A DNA stretch of 64,000 nucleotides from Epibacterium ulvae. GTDB lineage: Bacteria > Pseudomonadota > Alphaproteobacteria > Rhodobacterales > Rhodobacteraceae. Under the pieces are notes generated by a model that searched no databases, was not told the DNA's origin, and saw nothing but the letters and a program-made list of their open reading frames with translations. The stretch is from the NCBI RefSeq assembly GCF_900102795.1, contig NZ_FMWG01000002.1, positions 1 to 64,000 of the forward strand, in the 5' to 3' direction. Positions 1-12,534 of the stretch are shown in pieces (the stretch's first letter is position 1; every line of letters starts with the position of its first letter). The translations under genes and the position numbers were made by a program.

Positions 1-200
1 GTCACCGCCAAACCTAGTAAAATCCACAAAACTCTCAAGACGATAACAAAAAAAATACCCCTCAAAAGCCCCGGCTCAAAAAAGGGGAAAACACCAAAAC
101 AGACAAATCTGTCGCGGTGAAAAAGATCAAAACCGTGCGACACCGGAACATGATCTCATGGCTTAAATAAGCCCATAAGGGCAAAAGCCCAAAAAAGCGT

Positions 201-277
<77 letters not shown>

Positions 278-565
278 ATAATAGCATAATATATCATGTT
301 GTTGATGTTAAAGATGCCAAACCGGCCGCATCGGGGGCTGTTTGCGTTTTAGCGCTAATCTCTTATTGCATAGGTTCAAGTTTGGAAAGCCCCGCTTCAA
401 CACGAGGACCACTTCAAAGCCTGCGACGAGGGGGAAGACCTGTAGCGTGTAAGCGTCGCATATGGGGCAAAAATAGCACGACATCCCGTCGAGCATTAAA
501 ACCTCAATGATACTGAATAGTTGTATATTGATGATCAAAACATAACCTATCCAAGACACAGGCTG

Positions 566-1009
566 TCATTTGGCACTAAGCGATTTCAAACGATCCCAAA
601 TATGAGCCGCCACATCATTGCGGGTGCCCGACCGCAGGCGGACGGCATGAATTTGTGAGATAACTTGATAAAGCTCAGAGGCAACAGGGATGAGTTTTCC
701 GGCGCTCACCCAGTGTTCGGCATAGTGGTTTGGAATAAGGCCCACATGCGTGCCAGCAAGCGTCAGGTAAGCTGTCGATTCGACGTTGCCTTGTGAAACT
801 TCTGCGTTTTCCTCCAGAAGATGGATTTCGAGATGTTCGTCGATAGGGTTATTCAAGAAGCTATGGGCTGAAATTTTGCTGTCTTTCAGCCGGGCCTCTT
901 GCGTCTTGGTGTCCATGGATTGACCGCATGGATGCTCTGGTGAGCAATATAACCCGCTTTTCTCGTCATAGAGATGCAGGCGAGATGCCATAGGTTTTTG
1001 CGACATCAC
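566..1009 (-). pseudogene. LysR-family regulator, C-terminal fragment
   Basis: The 147-codon open frame resembles only the effector-binding half of a LysR-type transcription regulator. It carries a segment of the form LAGTHVGLIPNHYAEHWV, typical of the last third of these proteins, and a YxEKSGLYCSPEHP segment upstream. The N-terminal winged helix-turn-helix (about 60 residues) and the first effector subdomain are missing. The frame closes with a TGA just upstream of the GTG shown. The usual family length is near 300 residues, so this is a decayed remnant unlikely to be functional. It sits next to a transposon-like remnant, which may have caused the truncation. Confidence 0.65.
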
Positions 1010-1030
1010 GGGGTAAAAGGCGACCAGAGT

Positions 1031-1174
1031 TCATGAGCTGGCCAATCTCGTTTTAAACTTCTTAGGCCACAGGCGGCGGCCGTCTTTGCCGACGGGAATT
1101 GAAAAGCCGTAAGCATGAAAGATTTTTTCGATTTTCTGATCACTTAGGAGACCACTTAACGTTTGAGAGTTCAT
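1031..1174 (-). pseudogene. IS66-type helper protein remnant (47 codons)
   Basis: A short ATG-started frame, preceded by an AGGATAC-like ribosome binding site. It ends with a GKDGRRLWPKKFK segment reminiscent of the GRRxWPxExK motif near the start of small IS66-family accessory proteins (OrfA/TnpA type). The helix-turn-helix that should follow is absent because the frame stops at TGA. The start overlaps the stop of the upstream 115-codon frame by ATGA. It is probably a mobile-element scar. The family assignment is from memory and uncertain. Confidence 0.35.
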
Positions 1175-1518
1175 AATGCCTGTATCCTTTTAGGAGCAGC
1201 ATAGGATTTCTCAAATGATGTGTTCAGGGGGCAAATGAGGGGGTAGATGCAACGCTTACTACTAAACAGCTTATCGGAATAAAAAAAGGGCGCGAGACCG
1301 TTTTTTCGAACTTGCGACCATCCCGGCAGCTTCGTGGTATAACTGATGGCGCGCCCCAAAATGGACTTAATCGAAATCTCACTAGGAATGTCCGAATGAG
1401 TGACGAGATCAAGTAGGGGAGTTTTTTCGAGGAAGGTTTTGAGGCTTTCGTCACCGGGATCACCAATTATCACATCGTTGGCGTCTATGAAGCGATCAAT
1501 CGGCTTGGAATTATTCAT
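1171..1518 (-). CDS. hypothetical protein, 115 aa, unrecognised
   Basis: Not recognised. The frame starts MNNSKPIDRF and has a central GRAISYTTKLPGWSQVRKNG segment. The C-terminal 25 residues look non-conserved, as if read through decayed sequence. No good ribosome binding site precedes the ATG. The stop overlaps the start of the 47-codon frame downstream by four bases. It lies within the decayed region between the initiator tRNA and the catabolic cluster, so it may be a remnant rather than a gene. Confidence 0.3.
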   Translation of the reverse strand: MNNSKPIDRFIDANDVIIGDPGDESLKTFLEKTPLLDLVTHSDIPSEISIKSILGRAISYTTKLPGWSQVRKNGLAPFFYSDKLFSSKRCIYPLICPLNTSFEKSYAAPKRIQAL

Positions 1519-1541
1519 ACCTGAAACGCGTGAAGCAAGAT

Positions 1542-1582
1542 CGAAGACCGAGGCATGTTTCTGTTACATGCCTCGGTCTTCG
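1542..1582. terminator. long perfect hairpin, probable terminator
   Basis: Arms at 1542-1558 and 1566-1582 form a perfect 17-bp inverted repeat around a 7-nt loop (TTCTGTT). It lies 48 bp beyond the stop of the minus-strand Gfo/Idh gene. There is no clear T-run on either strand, so it may stabilise the 3' end rather than act as a classical intrinsic terminator. Confidence 0.55.
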
Positions 1583-1629
1583 TGTTTCAAGCGCGGGACT
1601 GAAAAAAAGCGCAGGTTATGTTGGCAAAA

Positions 1630-2736
1630 TTATGCGAATTCAGACATCTCTACGACACGTTTTTCGGCGATCGAGCGTTGGGCGGCCAGACCCATCTGCA
1701 CAGCCCGTTTGCCATCCTCCAATGTCACATCTGGGGATTCCCGGTTTCCTCTGACCAGATCCAAGAAACCTTGGTGTTGGTAAAAGGTAGATCCATTGTG
1801 ATCCCCAGCGTCTAGGATCCTTGGGTCAACTGGGATCTCTCTTAAGTGCGGCCCTTTTGGAGAACGCGGGCTCACAATAACCTGTGGAATTGGAGGGGCT
1901 CCTAAATGTTCTGGCCAGAACCGGCCGGGCCCCGGAACAAGAGCTTCTATCTTTCCGTCTGGGCCAACGGCTGAGATTTCTTCTTGGTAGCGAGAACCTT
2001 CGGCAAACATGCAGAGTTCAAGCATTGCACGTGTGCCATTGTTGAAATCAACGATCACATATCCATTGTCGAGAATATCGGGTGTCTGGCCTTCATAGCG
2101 TTCCTCCAAATGATTTGCATCCATCGCACCGGATGCCATTATGCGCACTGGCTCTGCCTTTAGCGCAAAACGCATGAGATCAAAGAAGTGGCAGCACTTT
2201 TCGACAAAGGTACCGCCTGTGTAGAGATTGAAGCGATTCCAGTCTCCGACTTTTTCAAGAAAGGGGAAACGATGTTCGCGAATTGTGAGCATCTTGATGC
2301 CACCGGTTGCTGCCTCCGCATCCGATAGCAAGGTCGCAACAGGGGGCATGTAGCGGTATTCCATGGCGACCCAAACGGGCGCCGGGTAGTGGGCCTGGAA
2401 ATGATTGAGGCGTTGAATGTCATCCGGATCTGTAAACAGAGGTTTTTCGACCAGAACGGGCAGGGGACGTTTCTCTGCCAGAAGCTCTAGCTGTTCCATA
2501 TGACAATGGTTGGGGCTAACAATCACCAGGCAATCGAGATTTTCAACCTCGAGTAGGGCGTCAATGCTGTCCATCATCTGGGCCTTTGGCGCAAAGCTTT
2601 GAGCAATGCGCGCCATGTCCGCGTCGGGCTCGTAAATCGCAGCGATTGAGGTTTCTGAAAGCAGGGCGATGTTTCGCAGGTGCTCCTGTCCCATCATGCC
2701 ACAGCCGATGATGCCATATGAAATGTGACGAACCAT
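1630..2736 (-). CDS. Gfo/Idh/MocA-fold enzyme; candidate NAD-dependent sulfoquinovosidase
   Basis: This 368-aa protein has an N-terminal Rossmann domain (GIIGCGMMG at residues 8-16) and the EKP motif at 97-99. A C-terminal alpha/beta domain follows, with a family-like GGTFVEKCCHFFDLMRF segment. These are the signatures of NAD(P)-dependent Gfo/Idh/MocA oxidoreductases. A good AAGGAA precedes the ATG, and it follows the GntR gene by 9 bp, so they form one transcript. The divergent neighbours look like sulfoquinovose monooxygenase pathway genes. NAD-dependent sulfoquinovosidases (GH188) belong to this fold and occur in such clusters. I therefore infer cleavage of sulfoquinovosides to free sulfoquinovose. 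A plain sugar dehydrogenase is the main alternative. Confidence 0.75.
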   Translation of the reverse strand: MVRHISYGIIGCGMMGQEHLRNIALLSETSIAAIYEPDADMARIAQSFAPKAQMMDSIDALLEVENLDCLVIVSPNHCHMEQLELLAEKRPLPVLVEKPLFTDPDDIQRLNHFQAHYPAPVWVAMEYRYMPPVATLLSDAEAATGGIKMLTIREHRFPFLEKVGDWNRFNLYTGGTFVEKCCHFFDLMRFALKAEPVRIMASGAMDANHLEERYEGQTPDILDNGYVIVDFNNGTRAMLELCMFAEGSRYQEEISAVGPDGKIEALVPGPGRFWPEHLGAPPIPQVIVSPRSPKGPHLREIPVDPRILDAGDHNGSTFYQHQGFLDLVRGNRESPDVTLEDGKRAVQMGLAAQRSIAEKRVVEMSEFA

Positions 2737-2745
2737 CTGTGTTCC

Positions 2746-3456
2746 TTAGATTAGGCGTTGTATGTAGCGCACCTGATTTGTGTCAAACCAGGTGCGAGAA
2801 TATTCAACCGCAGCGGGGCTTTGTGCCCAACTGAGGCGTTCGATGAATCCTGTAAGTGTGCCACTGCTCGGGCCAAACGACTGCGGAGCCCACTCAGGGA
2901 CCGTGTCGATTGAAACACTGTCTTCTGCGCGGCTGATCCAAAAGCCAAGCTGTGCGCGATAATATTGATAAAGCGAGTCTACGAGGCTGCCTTCGGAAAT
3001 ACGTCCAGCTGCACCATCCAGCCAGATCTCTTCGACAGCGATGGGCGTGTCATCGAGATAGCGAAGACGCCGAATGCGCGTCGCCATGTCAGACGCACCA
3101 AAAGCAGGCAGGTCCGCCGGTTTTTCACAAAACGTGACCGATAGGGCATCTGCGCTCGGCAGTCCGCCACCTTTTATAAGCTCAAGACGAAACATCGAAT
3201 AGACGCTATCAACGCGTTGGCTGTGGCGGACGTAATTTCCTGAGCCCTGAATGCGTTCTAGCAGGCCTTTGTGCTCCAGCTCAGTCAGTGATTTGCGCAA
3301 TGTACGCACTGTGGTGCCATGCTGCTTGGCCATCTCTCGTTCTGGTGGCAGTCGTTCGCCATCGACCAAGCGACCGGCCGCGATCTCACGGATCAGCGTT
3401 TCACTGATCTGCACATACAGTGGCAAGGAGGTTGGGCTATTCCGGCGGTTTGTCAT
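2746..3456 (-). CDS. GntR-family (HutC/UTRA) transcription regulator
   Basis: This 236-aa protein has an N-terminal winged helix-turn-helix at about residues 12-78. It contains LPPEREMAKQHGTTVRTLRK and the wing segment LERIQGSGNYV. A C-terminal UTRA-type effector domain follows, the fold used by HutC-type repressors to bind sugar or amino-acid ligands. It starts 100 bp from the divergent monooxygenase gene and heads a two-gene minus-strand transcript. It most likely represses both directions of the catabolic cluster until an intermediate, perhaps sulfoquinovose or its glycoside, binds. The ligand assignment is inference from context. Confidence 0.9.
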   Translation of the reverse strand: MTNRRNSPTSLPLYVQISETLIREIAAGRLVDGERLPPEREMAKQHGTTVRTLRKSLTELEHKGLLERIQGSGNYVRHSQRVDSVYSMFRLELIKGGGLPSADALSVTFCEKPADLPAFGASDMATRIRRLRYLDDTPIAVEEIWLDGAAGRISEGSLVDSLYQYYRAQLGFWISRAEDSVSIDTVPEWAPQSFGPSSGTLTGFIERLSWAQSPAAVEYSRTWFDTNQVRYIQRLI

Positions 3457-3479
3457 TTGCTTAGGCGATTCAGAAAAAA

Positions 3480-3541
3480 TTGATACACCATTGATCTACA
3501 TTAACGGGCGCGCTACGCAAGGGAAAGTTTACGTTGATCTA
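3480..3541. promoter_or_regulatory. divergent control region with three TTGATMYA repeats
   Basis: The 100-bp gap between the GntR and monooxygenase starts holds TTGATACA (3480-3487), TTGATCTA (3491-3498) and TTGATCTA (3534-3541). They are spaced 11 and 43 bp apart, close to whole turns of the helix and so on one DNA face. TTGATC at 3491-3496 with TACGCA at 3514-3519 (17-bp spacer) could be a promoter for the plus-strand operon. Operator function is inferred. Confidence 0.4.
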
Positions 3542-3556
3542 TCGGAGGAATCACTC

Positions 3557-4711
3557 GTGACAGTCGTGCCTATTACCTCACCGGACCTAGATGCAGTCGA
3601 GGTCTCTTGGTTTGCGGCTCTATGTTCTGATGATTATCAGTTTCTTGGGGTTCCAGATGGTGATTTGCGTTCGTCTTGGGCGCATTGTTCAAATATCGTG
3701 AAAGAGGCTGAGGCGCAGGGGTTTCGCAATATCCTGTGCCCTTCGTCTTATCAGGTTGGACAGGACACGTTGTCGTTTGTCGCGGGTTGTGCACCAATCA
3801 CGGAAAAAATCAACATGTTGGCGGCGGTGCGCTGCGGTGAAATGCAGCCGATCATGCTTGCGCGTACTCTTGCAACGCTGGATCACATGCTGGAAGGGCG
3901 GTTGACGGTGAATATCATCTCCTCTGATTTTCCAGGGGAAAAGGCAGACAGCAACTACCGCTATCAGCGTTCACGTGAGGTAGTCGAGATCCTGAAGCAA
4001 GCCTGGACCCAGGATGAGATCACCTACAAGGGCGAGGTCTATGATTTTGAAGGGCTCACGACAGACCCTGTGCGTCCCTATCAGGAAGGTGGCCCGCTTT
4101 TGTATTTTGGCGGCTATTCTCCGGCGGCTTTAGAGCTGTGTGGTCAGCACTGTGATGTCTATCTGATGTGGCCCGAGCCTAAGGAACAGCTGGCCGAACG
4201 TATGAAGGCGGTGAATACGGTTGCCGAAAAATATAATAGAACATTGGATTACGGCCTGCGTGTTCATTGCATCGTACGGGACACCGAAGCAGAAGCGCGT
4301 GAATACGCGGACTACATCGCGTCGAAGCTGGATGATGAATATGGTCAACTGATCCGGGAGCGTGCACTTGATTCTGGATCGCTTGGGGTTTCGCATCAAG
4401 CACGGGCGCGTGAGCTTGCGGATAAATTTGGCTATGTGGAGCCGAACCTTTGGACAGGCGTTGGTCGGGCGCGCTCTGGTTGCGGCGCCGCCTTGGTTGG
4501 TTCAACTGATCAAGTTATGAGCAAATTGGAAGAGTATCAAAAAATGGGGATGCGCGCCTTTATTCTTTCAGGCTATCCCCATCTGGAAGAAGCAAAACAC
4601 TTTGGGGCACGGGTTATGCCAAATCTGAAAACCTGTTCGTTGCCTGAGGCCTATGGCCGGGTTCCGGCCAGCACCCCAAAGACCCCACTGGGTGTAGGAG
4701 AACGCCGCTAA
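3557..4711 (+). CDS. smoC: FMN-dependent sulfoquinovose monooxygenase (LLM class)
   Basis: This 384-aa luciferase-like monooxygenase resembles SsuD alkanesulfonate monooxygenases throughout. Segments include NILCPSSYQVGQDTL, LAAVRCGEMQPIMLAR, LDHMLEGRLTVNIISSDFPG and LLYFGGYSPAALELC. I chose the GTG at 3557 because GGAGGA lies 7 bp upstream and homology begins there. A longer open frame runs back over the GntR gene but is not coding. SmoC uses reduced FMN and O2 to remove sulfite from sulfoquinovose, giving 6-oxo-glucose. The text agrees closely with Agrobacterium SmoC as I remember it. The aldo/keto reductase and flavin reductase that follow are the expected partners. Confidence 0.8.
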   Translation: MTVVPITSPDLDAVEVSWFAALCSDDYQFLGVPDGDLRSSWAHCSNIVKEAEAQGFRNILCPSSYQVGQDTLSFVAGCAPITEKINMLAAVRCGEMQPIMLARTLATLDHMLEGRLTVNIISSDFPGEKADSNYRYQRSREVVEILKQAWTQDEITYKGEVYDFEGLTTDPVRPYQEGGPLLYFGGYSPAALELCGQHCDVYLMWPEPKEQLAERMKAVNTVAEKYNRTLDYGLRVHCIVRDTEAEAREYADYIASKLDDEYGQLIRERALDSGSLGVSHQARARELADKFGYVEPNLWTGVGRARSGCGAALVGSTDQVMSKLEEYQKMGMRAFILSGYPHLEEAKHFGARVMPNLKTCSLPEAYGRVPASTPKTPLGVGERR

Positions 4712-5601
4712 TGCAACGTATTGCACTGAATTCTGATCTGTCTTTTAGCCGCCTTGTCTATGGCATGTGGCGTATTGGTGACGTCGAGGACACATCTCCT
4801 GCGGCTGTTGAGGCGAAAATTCAGGCCTGTCTGGAGCAAGGTATCACCACCTTTGATCAGGCCGATATTTATGGTGCCTACACCGCCGAGGCAATTTTAG
4901 GTGGCGCGCTTAAGGCCAATCCAAGTCTGCGCAAGGAAATGGAGATCGTCACCAAATGTGATATCGTCGCGCCCATCGGCTGCTATTCTGACAAGCCGGT
5001 TAAATATTATGATACATCCCGTGCCCATATTGAAAAATCAGTGGATCGCTCTTTGTCAGAGATGGGGATCGAACAGATTGATCTGTTGTTGGTCCATCGT
5101 CCCGATCCTTTGATGGATCATAACGAGACGGGGGCTGCACTGGATGATCTTGTGGCGTCGGGTAAAGTGCGCACTGTTGGAGTGTCGAATTTTCGTCCGT
5201 GGGATTGGAACCTGCTTCAATCTGCAATGAAAAACCAACTGGTCACAAATCAGATCGAAATCTCTTTGTCTGAGATTTCTCCGTTCACAAATGGTGATAT
5301 CGCTTTCCATCAGCAGCATGATCAGGCCATGATGGCATGGTCTCCATTAGGAGGCGGTAGCTTGATGACGGGTGATGGTGCGGTTGCCACGGCGTTGGAC
5401 AAGGTGGCCAATGCACAAGGGGTAGATCGTGCTGCGGTGGCTGTCGCATTCTTATTGCGCCACCCGTCCAAAATCCTGCCGGTTCTTGGGACAAATAATT
5501 TGGATCGCATTGCAAAGATTTCGGATGCGTTGAAAGTCGAGCTGGATCGTGAGAGCTGGTTCACATTGTATGAAGCTGCACTGGGCAACGAGGTGCCATG
5601 A
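4711..5601 (+). CDS. smoB: aldo/keto reductase, candidate 6-oxo-glucose reductase
   Basis: This 296-aa aldo/keto reductase barrel carries the catalytic tetrad Asp49, Tyr54, Lys82 and His129 (in FDQADIYG, TKCD and VHRPDP). The cofactor-end segment PVLGTNNLDRI is near residue 255. The ATG overlaps the stop of the monooxygenase (TAATG), so the two are translationally coupled. In the sulfo-SMO pathway SmoB reduces 6-oxo-glucose to glucose with NADPH. The opening residues MQRIAL and VYGMWRIGD match what I recall of Agrobacterium SmoB. Without the neighbours I would call it a YdhF-like reductase of unknown substrate. Confidence 0.8.
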   Translation: MQRIALNSDLSFSRLVYGMWRIGDVEDTSPAAVEAKIQACLEQGITTFDQADIYGAYTAEAILGGALKANPSLRKEMEIVTKCDIVAPIGCYSDKPVKYYDTSRAHIEKSVDRSLSEMGIEQIDLLLVHRPDPLMDHNETGAALDDLVASGKVRTVGVSNFRPWDWNLLQSAMKNQLVTNQIEISLSEISPFTNGDIAFHQQHDQAMMAWSPLGGGSLMTGDGAVATALDKVANAQGVDRAAVAVAFLLRHPSKILPVLGTNNLDRIAKISDALKVELDRESWFTLYEAALGNEVP

Positions 5602-6116
5602 ACGATATGACTCCCACAGCGCCGACACGTTTTGTACCGGGTGAAGATAACACACGACTGTTGCGAGATGCTTTTGGGCGGTTCGCAACAGGTGTGACTG
5701 TTGTGACGACGGATAGTCCAGATGGCGTTGTCGCAATCACGGCCAATAGTTTTTCATCTGTGTCGCTGAACCCGCCGTTGGTAATGTGGGCCCCCGACAA
5801 GGCCTCCCGTCGTTTTCCGTATTTTGAGAAAGCGGAACATTATGCCGTTCATGTGCTTGCAGCTGAGCAAAAGGACCTGTGTTGGAGTGTGGCTAAGGAT
5901 CTAAGCTGTCTGCGTGAAATGGATCTCAACCGGAATGCCGAAGCTGTCCCCGTGCTGGAAGGCTGTCTCGCACGGTTTGAATGCCGCCAGTCTGCTGTCT
6001 ATGAGGGCGGAGATCATATCATCGTCCTTGGCGAGGTATTACGGGCCGAGATGCGGGAAGAGGGTGACGCGTTGGCGTTTTTTAAAGGGCAGATGGGATC
6101 TTTTTCCGCGTCTTAA
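5598..6116 (+). CDS. smoA: flavin reductase partner of the monooxygenase
   Basis: This 172-aa protein is a single flavin-reductase-like domain of the split-barrel type. It contains the family segment FATGVTVVTTDSPDG followed by ITANSFSSVSLNPPLVMW at about residues 29-64. It would supply reduced FMN to the LLM monooxygenase two genes upstream. The start overlaps the aldo/keto reductase stop as ATGA, so all three genes form one coupled transcript. No intrinsic terminator is visible before the rpsD promoter. The specific smoA role rests on gene context. Confidence 0.8.
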   Translation: MNDMTPTAPTRFVPGEDNTRLLRDAFGRFATGVTVVTTDSPDGVVAITANSFSSVSLNPPLVMWAPDKASRRFPYFEKAEHYAVHVLAAEQKDLCWSVAKDLSCLREMDLNRNAEAVPVLEGCLARFECRQSAVYEGGDHIIVLGEVLRAEMREEGDALAFFKGQMGSFSAS

Positions 6117-6226
6117 GCACGCCAGAAATCATGTATTGTTTCCGCATCAATGCGGGAACTTTCTGTATTCAGCGAACGCAAATTTGAGATGTGGATATCT
6201 TTGCGGTTTTGGATGGCTGAAAACGC

Positions 6227-6254
6227 TTGACACCTCAACACCTTCCTATATACG
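6227..6254 (+). promoter_or_regulatory. probable rpsD promoter
   Basis: TTGACA at 6227-6232 and TATACG at 6249-6254 are separated by 16 bp, a near-consensus housekeeping promoter. Transcription from it would produce a leader of roughly 120 nt before the rpsD start codon. Confidence 0.6.
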
Positions 6255-6299
6255 CGCCCCACTATTGGTGTTGGTGGCCTCCGCAAGGAGATGCCTGTC

Positions 6300-6368
6300 A
6301 TGCCTGCCTTTGGCAGAGCAAGAGGACAACGCCCTTCGATACCACCTTCGGGTGGTGAATTTTTTTGA
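6300..6368 (+). CDS. possible leader peptide upstream of rpsD (22 aa)
   Basis: An ATG at 6300 with AAGGAG nine bases upstream opens a 22-codon frame, MPAFGRARGQRPSIPPSGG then EFF. It runs through the leader hairpin and stops at TGA 6366-6368, 12 bases before the rpsD GTG. The reading frame itself encodes the hairpin stem, so translation would disrupt it. It could be a leader peptide controlling rpsD. It could also be a chance frame, since homologous leaders were not compared. Confidence 0.35.
   Translation: MPAFGRARGQRPSIPPSGGEFF
6341..6366 (+). promoter_or_regulatory. attenuator-like hairpin in the rpsD leader
   Basis: ACCACC-TTCG-GGTGGT (6341-6356) is a stable UUCG tetraloop hairpin followed by GAA and seven T residues, the form of an intrinsic terminator. 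It lies only about 15 bases before the rpsD start, so it would end transcription before the gene. A smaller hairpin, CTGCC-TTT-GGCAG, lies just upstream at 6304-6316. Confidence 0.6.
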
Positions 6369-6380
6369 AGGAGATCAGCC

Positions 6381-7001
6381 GTGACTAAACGTACAGCTGC
6401 CAAGTATAAAATTGACCGCCGCATGGGCGAAAACATCTGGGGCCGTCCTAAGTCTCCAGTGAACCGTCGTGAATATGGCCCCGGCCAGCACGGTCAGCGC
6501 CGCAAGGGCAAATTGTCTGACTTTGGTATCCAGCTGCGTGCCAAGCAGAAGCTAAAAGGTTACTACGGTGACCTGACCGAAAAGCAATTCCGCCGCATCT
6601 ACGGTGAAGCTGAGCGTGTAAAAGGCGATACCGGTGAAAACCTGATCGGCCTGCTGGAGCGCCGCCTGGACGCTGTTGTGTATCGCGCGAAATTCGTTGC
6701 AACTGTTTTTGCTGCACGTCAATTCGTGAACCACGGCCATGTTCTGGTTAACGGCAAGAAGGTGAACATTCCTTCTTACCGTGTTAAAGAAGGCGACGTG
6801 ATCGAAGTGCGTGACAAGTCCAAGCAACTGGCGGTTCTGCTGGAAGCGACACAGCTGGCTGAGCGCGATGTACCTGACTACATCGAAGCAGATCACAACA
6901 AAATGACTGCGACATTTGTTCGTGCGCCAGGCCTGTCTGATGTGCCTTACCCTGTTATCATGGAACCAAATCTGGTTGTTGAATTCTACGCGAAGAACTA
7001 A
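6381..7001 (+). CDS. rpsD: 30S ribosomal protein S4
   Basis: This 206-aa protein has the alphaproteobacterial S4 layout. An N-terminal basic region ([20 protein letters not shown]) is followed by the S4 RNA-binding domain around residues 95-160 ([32 protein letters not shown]). It binds 16S rRNA early in small-subunit assembly. The start is GTG, with GAAGGAG 8 bases upstream. It is a monocistronic gene with its own promoter, an attenuator-like leader and a terminator behind it, and is not part of the rpsM-rpoA operon as in many bacteria. Confidence 0.97.
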
Positions 7002-7027
7002 TCTTCGCCGCAATATTAGAATTTGTG

Positions 7028-7056
7028 AAAGGGCTGTCCTACGGGCGGCCCTTTTT
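7028..7056 (+). terminator. intrinsic terminator of rpsD
   Basis: AAAGGGC (7028-7034) pairs with GCCCTTT (7048-7054) and runs into a T-tract. It lies 27 bases after the rpsD stop. Confidence 0.85.
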
Positions 7057-7141
7057 CGTTTTTGTATCGCAAAGCCTGTGCAATATTCAAAATAAGGTCG
7101 TGAAACGGCCTGAATAAAATATAAAACAGGGAGCGTATCGA

Positions 7142-7711
7142 ATGACAGGGTTTATTCGAACAACATTAATCTCGTTGCTGATGATGGCTGGCACAGCAAC
7201 CATTGCAGCACCGTTGAAGCTGCAACCGGCTGATCCGCAACCCACGGGGCTCGCGCCGGGGCTGGCGGTGAAATATGCGTATCCAAGTGATGTAAAATCG
7301 CTGAGCAAAGCGGTTTCTGCTCTAAAGCGGGCAAAACCGGGGCCGGATCTGGTGGGGCTTGATTACCGCGAGACCGAAATTGGGGAAAAAACACTAACCT
7401 CAGATCGGGCAGAACAGGTTGCAGCTGAGATCACTGGCTTTGTCAAAATCGACAAGCCAGGCACCCACGTGATCGACTTTCTGGTAAACGATGGAATGCG
7501 CGCAACACTTGGTGGACAGATTGTTGGTGAATTTGATGGCCGCCAACCCTGTGAAGAGACGTTTGCGGTAGAAGTTGATGTACCCAAAGCGGGATGGTAT
7601 CCGCTGCATTTGGTTTATTTCCAGCGCACCCGGACAGCCTGTTTGCACATGCGCATGGGGGCTGCCGGAAAGCGGGTCAACTGGATGCCTGATACGGCCT
7701 TTGGCCATTAA
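7142..7711 (+). CDS. secreted PA14-like domain protein
   Basis: This 189-aa protein begins with a signal peptide of about 22 residues (basic MTGFIR, hydrophobic core, AxA-type cleavage near IAAP). Residues 95-180 read as a small beta-sandwich of PA14 type, with GFVKIDKPGTHVIDFLVNDG, GEFDGRQPC and AGWYPLHLVYFQ. PA14 domains bind carbohydrate or act as adhesion modules in the periplasm or outside the cell. Two cysteines (in RQPCEE and TACLHM) could form a disulfide. It is transcribed alone, and its specific ligand is unknown. Confidence 0.65.
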   Translation: MTGFIRTTLISLLMMAGTATIAAPLKLQPADPQPTGLAPGLAVKYAYPSDVKSLSKAVSALKRAKPGPDLVGLDYRETEIGEKTLTSDRAEQVAAEITGFVKIDKPGTHVIDFLVNDGMRATLGGQIVGEFDGRQPCEETFAVEVDVPKAGWYPLHLVYFQRTRTACLHMRMGAAGKRVNWMPDTAFGH

Positions 7712-7718
7712 GGTAAGA

Positions 7719-8180
7719 TTACAAGGGCAGCGGACGTGCTTCTGCAATGGTTTCCATTGCAAAATAAGACGTCACGCTGTCCAGCTCTACTCCAGCGATT
7801 AGGCGTTGATACACTCGATCGTATCGCGCCATGTCTTCGGTGACGACTTTCAGCTGATAGTCGTAATCACCACCGATGCGGTGAAAATCGACAACTTCTG
7901 GAATGGTCAGGACATGACGGCGGAACTGCATCAGCCAGTCCGCGGAATGATGACGTGTCCGCAGCATGACAAAGACAACAAGATCAAGGCCTAGCTTTTG
8001 GCGGGCAATGCGCGCGGTGCTGCCTTTAAGGATTCCCTTTTCATTCAAGGCCTTCAAACGTCGCCAGCAGGCGTTTTGCGAAAGGCCGACCTGTTCAGCA
8101 AGATCGCGCTGCGACAGGGATGCATCCAGTTGTAAGGCTTTCAAAATTTCACGATCTAAATGATCTACATTTTTGTCCAT
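7719..8180 (-). CDS. Lrp/AsnC-family regulator
   Basis: This 153-aa regulator has an N-terminal helix-turn-helix (LDREILKALQLDASLSQRDL, then VGLSQNACWRRLKALNEKG) and a C-terminal RAM ligand-sensing domain. I chose the ATG at 8180 because the family starts there. The longer open frame upstream would overlap the divergent gene. It faces a class V aminotransferase across a 106-bp AT-rich gap, so it probably controls that gene in response to an amino acid. It is convergent with the PA14 gene, which ends 7 bp away. Confidence 0.9.
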   Translation of the reverse strand: MDKNVDHLDREILKALQLDASLSQRDLAEQVGLSQNACWRRLKALNEKGILKGSTARIARQKLGLDLVVFVMLRTRHHSADWLMQFRRHVLTIPEVVDFHRIGGDYDYQLKVVTEDMARYDRVYQRLIAGVELDSVTSYFAMETIAEARPLPL

Positions 8181-8286
8181 ATAAATATCATATGACACAT
8201 GAATACAAAAAAATATAAAAAAATAGGTGAGATTAGCTGAAGCTGTTTCGTTCATTATTGAGGGGGGCAGTAAGAGGATCACACCT

Positions 8287-9711
8287 ATGGATTTCACAGA
8301 TTTCAAAGCAATATGTGAACAAGATGCGCGGTCAGGCGCTCTGGCGCAGGGGGTGATTGGGGAAGGTACAAAAATTCCTGGGCTTTTTGGGGATGTGCCG
8401 CTCATTTATGCGGATTACGTCGCCTCTGGACGGGCGCTGCGACAAGTGGAAAGCTTTGTGGCTGAACATGTCCTGCCATTTTATGCAAATTCACATACTG
8501 AGGCTTCGTATTGTGGGGGCCGTATGACCCAGATGCGACGTGCTGCCCGCAGCGAAATTGCGCGTATCTGTGGTGCGATGCCAAAAGATAAGGTGATTTT
8601 TGCGGGATCAGGGGCAACGGCGGGGATCAATCGGCTTGTCTCTCTCTTGGGGGTCAACACGGCTCAACGCCCGGTGGTTTTTATCGGGCCTTATGAGCAT
8701 CATTCCAATATTTTGCCATGGCGTGAGAGCAAGGCTAAGGTTGTAGAGATCCCCGAAGCTAAAGAAGGGGGCGTAGATGTAAGCGCGCTCAAGCAGGCGT
8801 TGTGGGATCATCAGGATTGTGATCTTAAGATTGGTAGTTTTTCGGCAGCGTCCAACGTGACTGGTATCCTAACAGATCCAGAAAATGTGTCGAAGATCTT
8901 GCGCGCGCACGATGCGCGGGTGATTTGGGATTATGCGGGCGGTGGGCCTTACCTTCCCATTGATATGGGCGCACATGGCGCTATCCGCAAAGACGCTGTG
9001 GTGGTCTCACCTCATAAATTTCCGGGCGGCCCTGGTGCCTCTGGTGTGTTGATTGTAAACCCTGACATTGTGGCGCGTCACACGCCATCGTTGCCGGGTG
9101 GTGGCACCGTGAAATTTGTTTCTCCCTGGCGACATGATTACAGCGACGATCTGGTAGCGCGCGAAGAAGCCGGAACGCCTAATGTTTTGGGTGATATTCG
9201 TGCCGCGCTTGCGTTTTTGGTCAAAGAAGCTGTGGGGCAAGAGGTGATCGAGACGAGGGAGCATGTATATTATGAAAAAGCACGCGCCGTTTTTCAGGCG
9301 TGTTCTCAGCTTGAGCTGCTTGGGCATCCAACCACCGAGCGCTTGCCCATTCTGTCATTTCGCGTGCATGGGAATTCTGGCCAACCGGTGCACCAGCAGC
9401 TTTTCACCCGCATGTTGAGCGATGTGTACGGGATACAAGCCCGTGGCGGATGTGCCTGCGCTGGCCCTTATGCACATCGACTGCTGGATATTGATGCAAG
9501 ACAATCTGATGCGTTGATCTCAGCCCTGTCCGATGGAAAGGAATTGGAAAAGCCGGGCTGGGTTCGGCTGAACCTGTCGTATATGATGTCTGAAGCCACT
9601 GTTGACTATATCCTGAACAGCGTCGTTGCACTTGCAAAACAGGCCGAAAAACTGGCGGAACACTACGTTGTGGATGCCTCTACAGCACGTTTTCGCGTAG
9701 CTGCAGAGTAG
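8287..9711 (+). CDS. class V aminotransferase / cysteine desulfurase-like enzyme
   Basis: This 474-aa PLP enzyme has the Schiff-base lysine at about Lys244 (SPHKFPGGPG) and the cofactor-binding Asp at about 215 (DYAGGG). A C-terminal RGGCACAGPYAHRLL carries cysteines near 389 and 391, where cysteine desulfurases hold their reactive Cys. The protein is longer than typical SufS or IscS proteins (about 400 residues), and no Fe-S assembly genes are nearby. It may act on a different sulfur or amino substrate. Start 8287 has AGAGGA 8 bases upstream. The divergent Lrp gene is its likely regulator. The substrate is unknown. Confidence 0.8.
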   Translation: MDFTDFKAICEQDARSGALAQGVIGEGTKIPGLFGDVPLIYADYVASGRALRQVESFVAEHVLPFYANSHTEASYCGGRMTQMRRAARSEIARICGAMPKDKVIFAGSGATAGINRLVSLLGVNTAQRPVVFIGPYEHHSNILPWRESKAKVVEIPEAKEGGVDVSALKQALWDHQDCDLKIGSFSAASNVTGILTDPENVSKILRAHDARVIWDYAGGGPYLPIDMGAHGAIRKDAVVVSPHKFPGGPGASGVLIVNPDIVARHTPSLPGGGTVKFVSPWRHDYSDDLVAREEAGTPNVLGDIRAALAFLVKEAVGQEVIETREHVYYEKARAVFQACSQLELLGHPTTERLPILSFRVHGNSGQPVHQQLFTRMLSDVYGIQARGGCACAGPYAHRLLDIDARQSDALISALSDGKELEKPGWVRLNLSYMMSEATVDYILNSVVALAKQAEKLAEHYVVDASTARFRVAAE

Positions 9712-9815
9712 CAGGAGGCAAAAAAACCGAGTGGAGAAGCAGCTTGTCTGATCTTGCGGCTTTTCCATTGTTCGATGCGGCTGTATGACTGGGCTGATTA
9801 AAGGAGCCCGATGCT

Positions 9816-10913
9816 ATGACGCAGATCACACCGCAGCCTGGAATTATGGATATTGCCCTTTATCAGGCGGGGAAATCTCATGTGGCGGGACAGACGCGTG
9901 TGCTCAAACTGAGTGCAAATGAAAACCCGTTTGGCCCCAGTCCAAAGGCGATTGCGGTTGCGCAATCTGCGGCGCCTGATTTGCATCGTTATCCTTCTAC
10001 AGATCATAGCGAATTGCGCGCAGCAATTGGTGAAATTCACAATCTGGACCCTGATCGTATCATCTGCGGTGTCGGCAGTGATGAGGTTTTGCAATTTGTT
10101 GTGCAGTGTTACACAGGCCCTGGAGATGAGGTGATCTACACCGAGCATGGGTTTTCCATGTATCCCATTCTGGCGCGCCAAGCAGGGGCGACGCCCGTTT
10201 GCGTGCCAGAAACGAACCGTGTTGTCGATGTTGATCTGATCCTCAATGCGGTGACGGAACGCACGCGCCTGGTGTTTTTGACCAACCCTGGCAATCCCAC
10301 CGGGACGTTGCTGCCCGCGGATGAGGTGGCGCGCTTGGCCGAGCAGTTGCCGGATCACATCTTGCTGGTTATTGATGGCGCTTATGCAGAGTTCGTGCGG
10401 CCAGAGGCGCGTTTTGATGCGGGTGTTAACCTTGTAGATACACGCGCGAATGTGATCATGACCCGTACCTTTTCAAAGGTTTATGGTCTTGGAGGGTTAC
10501 GGGTCGGCTGGGGCTATGCACCTCGCGCGATTATTGACGTACTGAACCGGGTACGCCAACCTTTCAACCTGTCAAATCTTTCACTTGCGACAGCAGAAGC
10601 GGCGTTGCGTGATCGTGATTATCTCGACATGTGTCGCCGTGAGAACGCAAAATGGCGAGATTGGCTGGCAGGAGAGCTTGCCGCTTTGGGGGTTCCTTCC
10701 GATCAGAGCCACACCAATTTTATTCTTGCACGTTTTGCGGACCAGAACGAGGCCGAAGCCTGCGATGCTCTTTTGCAGACACGCGGGATCATTGTGCGCA
10801 AAGTGGCGGGATACGGTCTCCCAGAGGGGTTGCGGATCACGATTGGTGACGAAGAAGGGTGCCGTGCCCTTGCCGCGGCGATCAGAGCGTTCAAAGAAGG
10901 CGCGCGCGCATGA
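9816..10913 (+). CDS. hisC: histidinol-phosphate aminotransferase
   Basis: This 365-aa fold-type I aminotransferase has the PLP lysine at 221 ([17 protein letters not shown]), NPGNPTG at 157-163 and the early [12 protein letters not shown]. It catalyses the PLP-dependent step to histidinol phosphate and, in many bacteria, aromatic amino acid transamination. It precedes tyrC with an ATGA overlap. This arrangement suggests a combined role in histidine and in tyrosine/phenylalanine synthesis, as in other alphaproteobacteria. Confidence 0.92.
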
Positions 10914-11830
10914 GCGCCCCAGTATATGATCGTATTGCCCTGATTGGTTTGGGATTGATCGCCTCATCGATGTATTGGGCGATCAAACGCGCAGGCCTCG
11001 CGCAAGAGGTGACTGGGTTTGCCAAGAGCGCAGAAAGCCGTGCGACCGCGCGTCGGATTGGTCTTTGTGATCGTGTCTGTGAGAGCGCTGCTGAAGCTGT
11101 TGAAGGCGCAGATCTCGTGGTGCTGTGCGTGCCCGTTGGTGCTATGGGACGCGTTGCGGCTGAAATCGCGCCGCACTTAAAGGTTGGCGCTACTGTTTCT
11201 GATGTGGGATCTGTCAAGCGCAGCGTTGTTGAACAGGTCGGTCCGCATCTGCCCGAAGGTGTCCATTTCGTCCCGGCCCATCCCATTGCAGGAACTGAAC
11301 ATTCAGGACCAGAATCCGGTTTTGCGACATTGTTTGACAATCGCTGGTGCTTGCTGGTGCCGGTTGAAGGTACAGACCCAGAAGCGGTGCAGTGCTTGCG
11401 CACGCTTTGGGAGGGGATGGGTGCAAAAGTGGATGAGATGACAGCCGATCACCATGATCTTGTTTTGGCTGTTACGTCGCATGCCCCACATTTGATCGCC
11501 TATACGATGGTTGGGGTTGCGGATGATTTGCAACGGGTCACAGATGGCGAGGTGATCAACTACTCGGCTGCAGGATTTCGTGACTTTACGCGGATTGCCG
11601 CATCCGATCCCACCATGTGGCGCGATGTGTTCTTGACCAATAAAGAAGCCACGCTGGAAATTCTGGGCCGTTTCACTGAAGAGCTTTTTGCGCTGCAGCG
11701 TGCAATCCGAACCGGAGATGGTGATCATCTGCATGAGTACTTCACCCGAACACGCGCCATTCGTCGGGGGATTATTGATGCAGGTCAGGACACGGCGGCG
11801 CCGAACTTTGGTCGGGAAACTACGCAATGA
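10910..11830 (+). CDS. tyrC: prephenate/arogenate dehydrogenase
   Basis: This 306-aa protein has an N-terminal Rossmann domain ([20 protein letters not shown]) and a helical C-terminal domain of prephenate dehydrogenases. The family signatures [13 protein letters not shown] and [11 protein letters not shown] are present. It carries out the oxidative decarboxylation leading to tyrosine. The ATG at 10910 overlaps the hisC stop (ATGA). The extensin-like gene downstream overlaps by the same four bases. NAD versus NADP and prephenate versus arogenate preference cannot be read here. Confidence 0.92.
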
Positions 11831-12534
11831 AGGGCCTTCGATCTGTTGCACTGATTGCCGGTCTAACCCTGTTGTCGAGTGTGGCTTGGGCCGATCAAGG
11901 CGAGACAACTCACGATACGCGCTCAGCGGCTTTGTCGGTGTCTTCGGCGGCATCGTTTTCAGAGATCAGGCAAAGCGATCTTGTTGAAAAAGTCTTGTTC
12001 AAAAGACGGAAACTGCGGAAAGAGGCGATTTGTGGCGATCTCGACATTCAGGGCGAAGAGGTGGGGGCCGTCGCGGGCAAATTACGCGGATGTGGAGCAC
12101 AAAATGCAGTGCGCGTGCGTTCGGTGGCGGGCGTAACCCTAAGCCAACCTTCAATTATGACATGCGAGACTGCATCAGCCCTATCGCAGTGGGTGCAAAA
12201 GGGGGTGCAACCCGCATTTCGCAAACGCGTGGTCGGTTTACGCGTCGCGGCCCATTATTCTTGTCGGACCCGAAACAATCGGCCCGGAGCTAAGATTTCT
12301 GAGCATGGTCGCGCCAAGGCAATCGATATCTCGGGTTTTGAGTTGAAAAATGGGGATTTGGTGACGGTGCTTCAAGGGTGGAAGGCGCGCGGCACGCGTA
12401 AGCAGCTGCAAAAAGTCTGGAAAGCCGCCTGTGGTCCTTTTGGTACGGTGCTGGGGCCAAAAGCGGATAGGTATCATCAGGATCATTTCCATCTTGATAC
12501 CGCGCGCCATCGTGGCGGGGCATATTGCCGATAA
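11827..12534 (+). CDS. extensin-like C-terminal domain protein, secreted
   Basis: This 235-aa protein has a signal peptide of about 22 residues ending in AWA. The C-terminal extensin-like domain contains YSCRTRNNRPGAKISEHG, AIDISGF and YHQDHFHLD. The His/Asp pattern is similar to that of metal-dependent LAS/D,D-carboxypeptidase-type cell wall peptidases. It is probably a periplasmic enzyme acting on murein. It overlaps tyrC by ATGA, so it is co-transcribed with it without an obvious metabolic link. The cysteine-rich middle region suggests disulfides. Confidence 0.75.
   Translation: MKGLRSVALIAGLTLLSSVAWADQGETTHDTRSAALSVSSAASFSEIRQSDLVEKVLFKRRKLRKEAICGDLDIQGEEVGAVAGKLRGCGAQNAVRVRSVAGVTLSQPSIMTCETASALSQWVQKGVQPAFRKRVVGLRVAAHYSCRTRNNRPGAKISEHGRAKAIDISGFELKNGDLVTVLQGWKARGTRKQLQKVWKAACGPFGTVLGPKADRYHQDHFHLDTARHRGGAYCR

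What the first reader, a model, noticed from the sequence alone, without database searches (positions are those of the whole stretch)
1630..6116. Compact candidate sulfoquinovose monooxygenase cluster with a Gfo/Idh-type glycosidase candidate
Sequence shows an LLM monooxygenase, an aldo/keto reductase with an intact D49/Y54/K82/H129 tetrad and a flavin reductase, coupled by ATG/stop overlaps. They diverge from a GntR regulator and a Gfo/Idh/MocA enzyme. Established: the sulfo-SMO pathway uses SmoC, SmoB and SmoA, and NAD-dependent sulfoquinovosidases (GH188) have the Gfo/Idh/MocA fold. Inference: this is a minimal pathway from sulfoquinovosides to glucose plus sulfite. No GH31-type sulfoquinovosidase and no ABC transporter is present, so the Gfo/Idh protein would do the deglycosylation and uptake must be encoded elsewhere.
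Basis: partly seen in the sequence, partly recalled or inferred. Interest (0 to 1): 0.8.

Follow-up and report, generated by a model that had tools for sequence, protein, structure and literature searches.

The report
Sulfolipid-sugar cluster that lost its transporter
A marine bacterium carries the known five-gene set for stripping sulfite from the plant and algal sugar sulfoquinovose, and compared with its closest relative the genes for the sugar's usual importer are cleanly missing while the enzymes look intact.

Summary
Window 1630-6116 encodes a GH188-type NAD-dependent sulfoquinovosidase and a GntR-UTRA regulator, diverging from SmoC, SmoB and SmoA relatives coupled by stop/start overlaps. 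Matches to solved structures are strong, the nine GH188 positions checked are kept, and the SmoB-like tetrad is intact. This is the sulfo-SMO pathway with a GH188 gateway enzyme, published in 2023 as near-universal in Roseobacter SMO clusters: a new member of a known kind.

A TRAP transporter follows smoA in 13 of 19 genome neighbourhoods and 59 of 80 named relatives (by dctP). The closest relative has smoA-dctQMP-TPR-CCP-rpsD; here smoA meets rpsD, about 5.25 kb being replaced by about 156 bases. No orthologue of the TRAP binding protein was found in the 99.7% complete genome. The enzymes show no sign of decay. Of SMO genomes without the TRAP protein, 14 of 17 carry an ABC binding protein of the family that this genome holds, unlinked, in a hexuronate-type operon, against 3 of 32 with TRAP. 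That ABC system is the leading but unproven importer; the association is borderline once relatedness is considered and fails under strict identity cuts.

The parts
1630..2736 (-). GH188 NAD+-dependent sulfoquinovosidase (SqgA-like, Gfo/Idh/MocA fold), 368 aa
   Evidence: phmmer 8zn9 E 6e-166, 8qc3 1e-107, 8qc2 2.4e-107; K98, Y127, E154, R156, L160, K162, E179, H183, H313 match GH188 positions of PMC10755693 and are the same in 97 of 97 relatives with a hit, of 99 searched
2746..3456 (-). GntR-family regulator with UTRA domain, 236 aa
   Evidence: PF00392 1.3e-15, PF07702 5e-19; found in 79 of 80 named relatives
3480..3504 (+). Predicted operator of the GntR regulator in the divergent intergenic region (TTGATACACCATTGATCTACAT, running into the near-palindrome TTGATCTACATTAA)
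   Evidence: conserved words in intergenic regions of relatives; single occurrence of the consensus in the whole genome at up to 3 mismatches, none for the reversed control; 0 expected in the window. Binding is inferred
3557..4711 (+). SmoC-like sulfoquinovose monooxygenase (FMNH2-dependent LLM class), 384 aa, GTG start
   Evidence: phmmer 7olf E 1.9e-213, 7oh2 8.3e-209, against 2.4e-56 for the next alkanesulfonate monooxygenase; PF00296
4711..5601 (+). SmoB-like aldo/keto reductase (6-dehydroglucose to glucose), 296 aa
   Evidence: phmmer 7bby 2.9e-124, 7bbz 3.4e-124, next entry 4.2e-58; tetrad D49/Y54/K82/H129
5598..6116 (+). SmoA-like flavin reductase, 172 aa
   Evidence: PF01613 1.2e-35; FerA-type NF052639 5.1e-58, below that family's cut-off
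6093..6248 (+). Interval without match to G003 (it includes the last 24 bases of smoA): in that closest relative (L033) it corresponds to 5.25 kb holding dctQ, dctM, dctP, a TPR gene and a cytochrome c peroxidase gene
   Evidence: blastn: window 1635-6092 = L033 6078-10536 (76%), window 6249-7062 = L033 15791-16612 (88%); gene order
6381..7001 (+). rpsD (ribosomal protein S4), the right-hand neighbour shared with G003
   Evidence: 99% identical in L033, where it follows dctQMP-TPR-CCP; named S4 from its sequence by recall, not from a family search

Best explanation
The cluster encodes the sulfo-SMO pathway. Inside the cell the GH188 enzyme splits sulfoquinovosyl glycerol by NAD+-dependent transient oxidation at C3. 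SmoA supplies reduced flavin, with which SmoC cleaves the C-S bond of sulfoquinovose to sulfite and 6-dehydroglucose. SmoB reduces that to glucose. The UTRA-type GntR protein probably represses both divergent arms from the operator at 3480-3504 until a sulfoquinovose-derived ligand binds. The ancestral cluster also held a TRAP transporter (dctQMP); this lineage deleted it together with a TPR and a cytochrome c peroxidase gene, bringing smoA next to rpsD, and kept the enzymes. Shown by sequence: family membership, active-site residues, gene order, missing block, no TRAP binding-protein orthologue found in the genome. Inferred: the reactions, the repressor action, deletion as the direction of change, and that uptake now runs through another importer.
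For: Sequence matches to solved structures; GH188 residues; conserved five-gene set; TRAP genes after smoA in 13 of 19 genome loci, 59 of 80 named loci by dctP (some genomes are in both sets) and 4 of 4 annotated plasmid regions; colinear blocks either side of the missing stretch in the sister lineage; no dctP orthologue in the genome, best matches 24-26% identical, none at E 1e-60; dN/dS against G003 of 0.018 for smoC, 0.023 for smoB and 0.099 for gntR, with no excess of amino-acid changes on the window branch for the enzymes (smoC 3 against 6, smoB 5 against 6, smoA 7 against 7, gh188 15 against 12); glucokinase present; a YeiH-like exporter gene beside xsc; published pathway and GH188 link in Roseobacters.
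Against: No activity, growth or expression data for this organism. The dS values are saturated (1.7 and above), so the ratios are rough, and 11 to 42 differences per gene could not be assigned to a branch. The regulator shows 11 window-branch against 3 sister-branch amino-acid changes, which could mean relaxed or shifted regulation. Without the importer the pathway might be fed only by leakage, or be starting to decay; the age of the deletion is unknown. Deletion here rather than insertion in G003 rests on parsimony.
Confidence: 0.9

Rival explanations
1. Transporter swap: the unlinked ABC operon G000:C22 (about 73973-79665; binding protein, two permeases, ATPase, mannonate dehydratase UxuA), at first a hexuronate importer, also imports sulfoquinovose or its glycoside and made the TRAP transporter dispensable.
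For: A binding protein of this family lies within about 10 kb of the SMO cluster in 9 of 21 dctP-less named loci and 0 of 59 dctP-bearing ones. Genome-wide it is present in 14 of 17 TRAP-less genomes and 3 of 32 TRAP-bearing ones. Sister G003 has TRAP and no match to the ABC protein at E 1e-60; G002 and G008 lack TRAP and have such an ABC transporter directly after smoA. Over 8 independent pairs the two traits go together in 5.4 on average and never oppositely.
Against: Sign test median p 0.0625 (range 0.031-0.125). With a cut of 60% or 70% identity the independent-pair signal vanishes (2.4 together, 1.0 opposite, median p 1), though Fisher's test, which ignores relatedness, gives 0.0012 and 0.0003. 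The UxuA link points to hexuronates. The predicted SMO operator is not found at that operon. Four TRAP-bearing genomes in the tree set also have the ABC protein. No unrelated transporter was run as a control.
Confidence: 0.35
2. Another importer of the genome is used, for example a paralogous TRAP system such as the one at C15 (dctM-like 46% and 38% over two parts, dctP-like 25%).
For: Several TRAP systems are present.
Against: All are distant from the SMO-linked TRAP proteins; the C15 stretch was fetched but not examined further.
Confidence: 0.2
3. Loss of uptake: after the deletion the cell can no longer import sulfoquinovose efficiently; the enzymes are kept for a while or act on an internal or leaked substrate.
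For: No dctP orthologue found; no second operator in the genome; the regulator may be changing faster (11 against 3).
Against: Enzymes constrained with no acceleration; reading frames open and checked active-site positions intact.
Confidence: 0.25
4. The monooxygenase system serves sulfur scavenging from alkanesulfonates (SsuD-like), and the Gfo protein is an ordinary sugar dehydrogenase.
For: NCBIfam's best name for the monooxygenase is alkanesulfonate monooxygenase, and for the Gfo protein inositol dehydrogenase.
Against: Both NCBIfam scores are far below the cut-offs (247 of 518 bits; 99 of 355). The structure-bearing relatives are SmoC (by recall of the entries) and GH188 by large margins; the GH188 sulfonate contacts are kept.
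Confidence: 0.03

Closest known systems
Sulfo-SMO (sulfo-ASMO) pathway of Agrobacterium tumefaciens and Novosphingobium aromaticivorans
   Same: SmoC, SmoB and SmoA relatives in one cluster
   Different: GH188 in place of the GH31 sulfoquinovosidase (GH31 in Agrobacterium by recall); no adjacent transporter, whereas PMC9594981 (passage) tells of an ABC transporter for sulfoquinovosyl glycerol in A. tumefaciens
Roseobacter-clade sulfo-SMO clusters with GH188 (PMC10755693)
   Same: Same enzymes; that paper calls GH188 near-universal there
   Different: The TRAP transporter that follows smoA in most relatives examined here is missing
GH188 SqgA enzymes (FlSqgA 8qc2, ArSqgA 8qc3)
   Same: Fold family, full-length similarity, catalytic and sulfonate-binding positions
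   Different: The tested enzymes come from Flavobacterium and Arthrobacter; 8zn9, a closer solved chain, is named only 'Oxidoreductase, putative'

Membership tests
Sulfo-SMO pathway | SmoB and SmoC encoded together (criterion of PMC13372026, passage) | tested here: met
   adjacent and overlapping genes
Sulfo-SMO pathway | Flavin reductase partner SmoA | tested here: met
   PF01613 1.2e-35; found in 76 of 80 named relatives
Sulfo-SMO pathway | Conversion of sulfoquinovose to glucose and sulfite | not testable with these tools
   Needs an assay
GH188 | Full-length similarity to SqgA, two-domain Gfo/Idh/MocA fold | tested here: met
   PF01408, PF02894; 8qc2/8qc3 E about 1e-107 over residues 2-364; fold inferred from sequence, no model made
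GH188 | Substrate and catalytic positions K107, Y136, E189, H193, H321 of ArSqgA | tested here: met
   K98, Y127, E179, H183, H313; positions mapped by hand through the alignment
GH188 | Sulfonate contacts R166, L170, K172 | tested here: met
   R156, L160, K162; 97 of 97 relatives with a hit agree
GH188 | NAD+-dependent cleavage of sulfoquinovosides | not testable with these tools
   Needs an assay
SsuD alkanesulfonate monooxygenase | NCBIfam TIGR03565 cut-off | tested here: not met
   247 of 518 bits needed
Cluster with dedicated sulfoquinovose transporter | TRAP or ABC transporter next to smoA | tested here: not met
   rpsD follows smoA

The most novel reading that the evidence does not exclude
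Sulfoquinovose uptake in Roseobacters is an exchangeable module: TRAP systems have been repeatedly replaced by ABC systems of a hexuronate-importer family, and in this genome an unlinked hexuronate-type ABC importer took over, letting the TRAP genes be deleted.
Probability: 0.35. Interest if true: 0.5.

Novelty: new member of a known kind. Interest (0 to 1): 0.3.

Why it matters
[quoted passage not shown] A genome that keeps the enzymes but lacks the usual importer shows that such calls may overlook uptake. The sister pair (window genome and G003) gives a natural comparison to test whether a hexuronate-type importer can carry the sulfosugar.

Tried and rejected
GH31 sulfoquinovosidase elsewhere in the genome: one GH31 gene, but it lies with a fructuronate-reductase-like gene (below that family's cut-off) and a glucuronate isomerase gene, and the searched part matches alpha-glucosidases better than YihQ-type enzymes (4.5e-37 against 1.1e-13); rejected as the sulfoquinovosidase.

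Relocated TRAP transporter: dctP matches 24-26% identical and none at E 1e-60; best dctM match 46% over part of the protein; rejected as relocated copies. dctQ was not searched in the genome.

Second operator site in front of an unlinked transporter: none at up to 3 mismatches. Rfam scan of window 1-12000 at E up to 1: only the tRNA reached its gathering score. A solved homologue for the SMO-linked ABC binding protein of L044: only weak matches, E 1e-8 or worse.

Rows dropped or moved: in the TRAP/ABC tally L111 (contig ends inside smoA) was left out; counting it as TRAP-less gives 14 of 18. L120 was counted as TRAP-bearing because dctQ follows smoA at a contig end, although one search finds no dctP in that genome. 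L104 was moved to TRAP-bearing because its genome holds dctP elsewhere, and L130 (dctQ and dctM in place) because its genome holds dctP. Of 59 dctP-bearing named loci, 29 were searched genome-wide for the ABC protein, picked by me at roughly even steps; 30 were not searched. The branch-change script stopped with an error at rpsD after the five cluster genes.
Full report
What is there. The monooxygenase starts at GTG 3557; its 384 residues align from residue 1 with 7olf (712 bits) and 7oh2 (697 bits), whereas the next solved alkanesulfonate monooxygenases, 7jv3 and 1nqk, score 195 and 185. The AKR matches 7bby and 7bbz (417 bits), the next entry 200. I recall these entries as SmoC and SmoB of the 2022 A. 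tumefaciens study; the PDB names in the tables are generic, a library search found no paper holding at least two of five entry codes, and the paper itself is not held. The Gfo/Idh/MocA protein matches 8zn9 (555 bits) and the GH188 structures 8qc3 and 8qc2 (363 and 362 bits).

GH188 residues. PMC10755693 (parts 1-3 of 4 read) lists in ArSqgA the contacts K107, Y136, E189, H193, H321 and the sulfonate contacts R166, L170, K172. Through the alignment (offset 13 in the chain, mapped by hand) these correspond to K98, Y127, E179, H183, H313 and R156, L160, K162, all kept; a neighbouring glutamate (E154, next to the paper's Glu163) is kept too. The same letters stand in 97 of 97 relatives in which a hit was found, of 99 searched. 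PMC11465081 (part 1 of 2 read) reports R166, L170 and K172 in 96-98% of GH188 sequences; this one is of the standard type.

Known kind. PMC10755693 reports near-universal GH188 enzymes in Roseobacter sulfo-SMO clusters. PMC13372026 (passages) designates genomes with SmoB and SmoC sulfo-SMO-positive. So the enzymology claim is right, and expected. Of 17 same-genus genomes searched, 14 have the monooxygenase, one of them as a fragment at a contig end.

The missing block. In annotated plasmid records the five genes are followed by a TRAP transporter in 4 of 4 regions read. In 19 genome neighbourhoods dctP is found with smoA in 13 (one of the other six is cut by a contig end); in 80 named loci dctQ is found in 61, dctM in 60, dctP in 59, TPR and cytochrome c peroxidase genes in 45 each. 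The closest relative, G003, has gh188-gntR-smoC-smoB-smoA-dctQ-dctM-dctP-TPR-CCP-rpsD. In the window smoA is followed by rpsD. Blastn gives two colinear blocks, window 1635-6092 to L033 6078-10536 and window 6249-7062 to L033 15791-16612, so about 5.25 kb there corresponds to about 156 bases here, the last 24 bases of smoA included. The junction lies about 6 kb inside a contig of 510,598 bases, so it is not a contig break. Since TRAP follows smoA in most outgroups, deletion in this lineage is the simpler reading. The binding protein has no orthologue that I could find in the genome: matches are 24-26% identical, none at E 1e-60.

Function kept. Against G003, NG86 dN/dS is 0.018 (smoC), 0.023 (smoB) and 0.099 (gntR), with dS of 1.7 to 3.4 and thus rough; for gh188 and smoA dS could not be computed. 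Amino-acid changes assigned with nine outgroups to the window branch and the G003 branch: smoC 3 and 6, smoB 5 and 6, smoA 7 and 7, gh188 15 and 12, gntR 11 and 3; unassigned: 11, 26, 12, 36 and 42. The enzymes do not look like decaying genes; the regulator may be evolving faster. The divergent intergenic region keeps a conserved element: of the regions of 60-160 bases among 96 extracted, the word AATTGATA or its complement is found in 73 and an exact TTGAT-N4-ATCAA palindrome in 46. The consensus that I made from them occurs once in the genome.

Where uptake may go. G002 and G008 have an ABC transporter plus a YeiH-type exporter in place of TRAP (families tested for G002). Its binding protein has one match in the window genome, at C22:73985-75232 (45%), in an operon with two permeases, an ATPase and UxuA, hence hexuronate-type. 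Near SMO clusters this family occurs in 9 of 21 dctP-less loci and 0 of 59 dctP-bearing loci (Fisher 1.3e-6, relatedness ignored). Genome-wide, 14 of 17 TRAP-less genomes and 3 of 32 TRAP-bearing genomes have it; the three TRAP-less exceptions (L117, L119, L128) have a different ABC system next to smoA. In its own genus it is in the three TRAP-less genomes (window, G002, G008), in two with TRAP (G011, G012), and not in G003 at E 1e-60. On a SmoC-SmoB-GH188 tree of 61 rows the TRAP-less state changes 8 times; over 8 independent pairs the ABC protein goes the same way in 5.4 on average, never the other way, median p 0.0625. With strict cuts of 60 or 70% identity only 2.4 pairs go the same way and 1.0 the other, so the claim depends on treating proteins 43-52% identical as one functional group. 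I hold it at about one in three.

After the pathway. A glucokinase gene and a YeiH-family exporter gene (below the NCBIfam cut-off) next to sulfoacetaldehyde acetyltransferase are present on other contigs, so glucose use and sulfite export have candidates. These are inferences from family names.

Literature limits. Searches for sulfoquinovose with 'TRAP transporter' (1 paper) and with 'tripartite' and 'transporter' (4 papers) listed no paper whose title concerns sulfoquinovose; I read only the listings. The 2023 Roseobacter study cited in PMC10755693 is not held and may describe the TRAP link, so I do not claim that link as new. PMC9594981 and PMC12890257 were seen as passages only; the other papers as listings.

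Noticed in passing
window 566-1009 and 1171-1518: Left flank looks decayed: a fragment matching only part of a LysR substrate domain and a short frame without a Pfam or NCBIfam match, between a tRNA-Met (201-277) and the cluster, near the end of the contig.
   Followed up: partly
window 6249-6380: The stretch before rpsD is highly conserved with G003 (with an identical run TATTGGTGTTGGTGGCCTCCGCAAGGAGATGCCTGTCATGCC) and may be an S4 leader; Rfam listed nothing there.
   Followed up: partly
L059 12580-13479 and loci L063, L088, L094, L097, L104, L122, L129: In Nioella-like and other loci whose cluster lacks TRAP, an AXE1-like alpha/beta hydrolase lies just after smoA; a candidate deacylase for sulfolipid or a modified sulfoquinovoside (loci with TRAP were not printed for this gene).
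   Followed up: partly
L033 13966-15744; 45 of 80 named loci: A TPR gene and a cytochrome c peroxidase gene accompany the TRAP genes in 45 of 80 named loci and are missing together with them here; a link to sulfite or peroxide handling is unexplored.
   Followed up: no
L117 12733-19267, and L119, L128 downstream of smoA: A different ABC transporter, whose putative binding protein has no Pfam match, sits next to smoA in these genomes of 2.2-3.1 Mb.
   Followed up: partly
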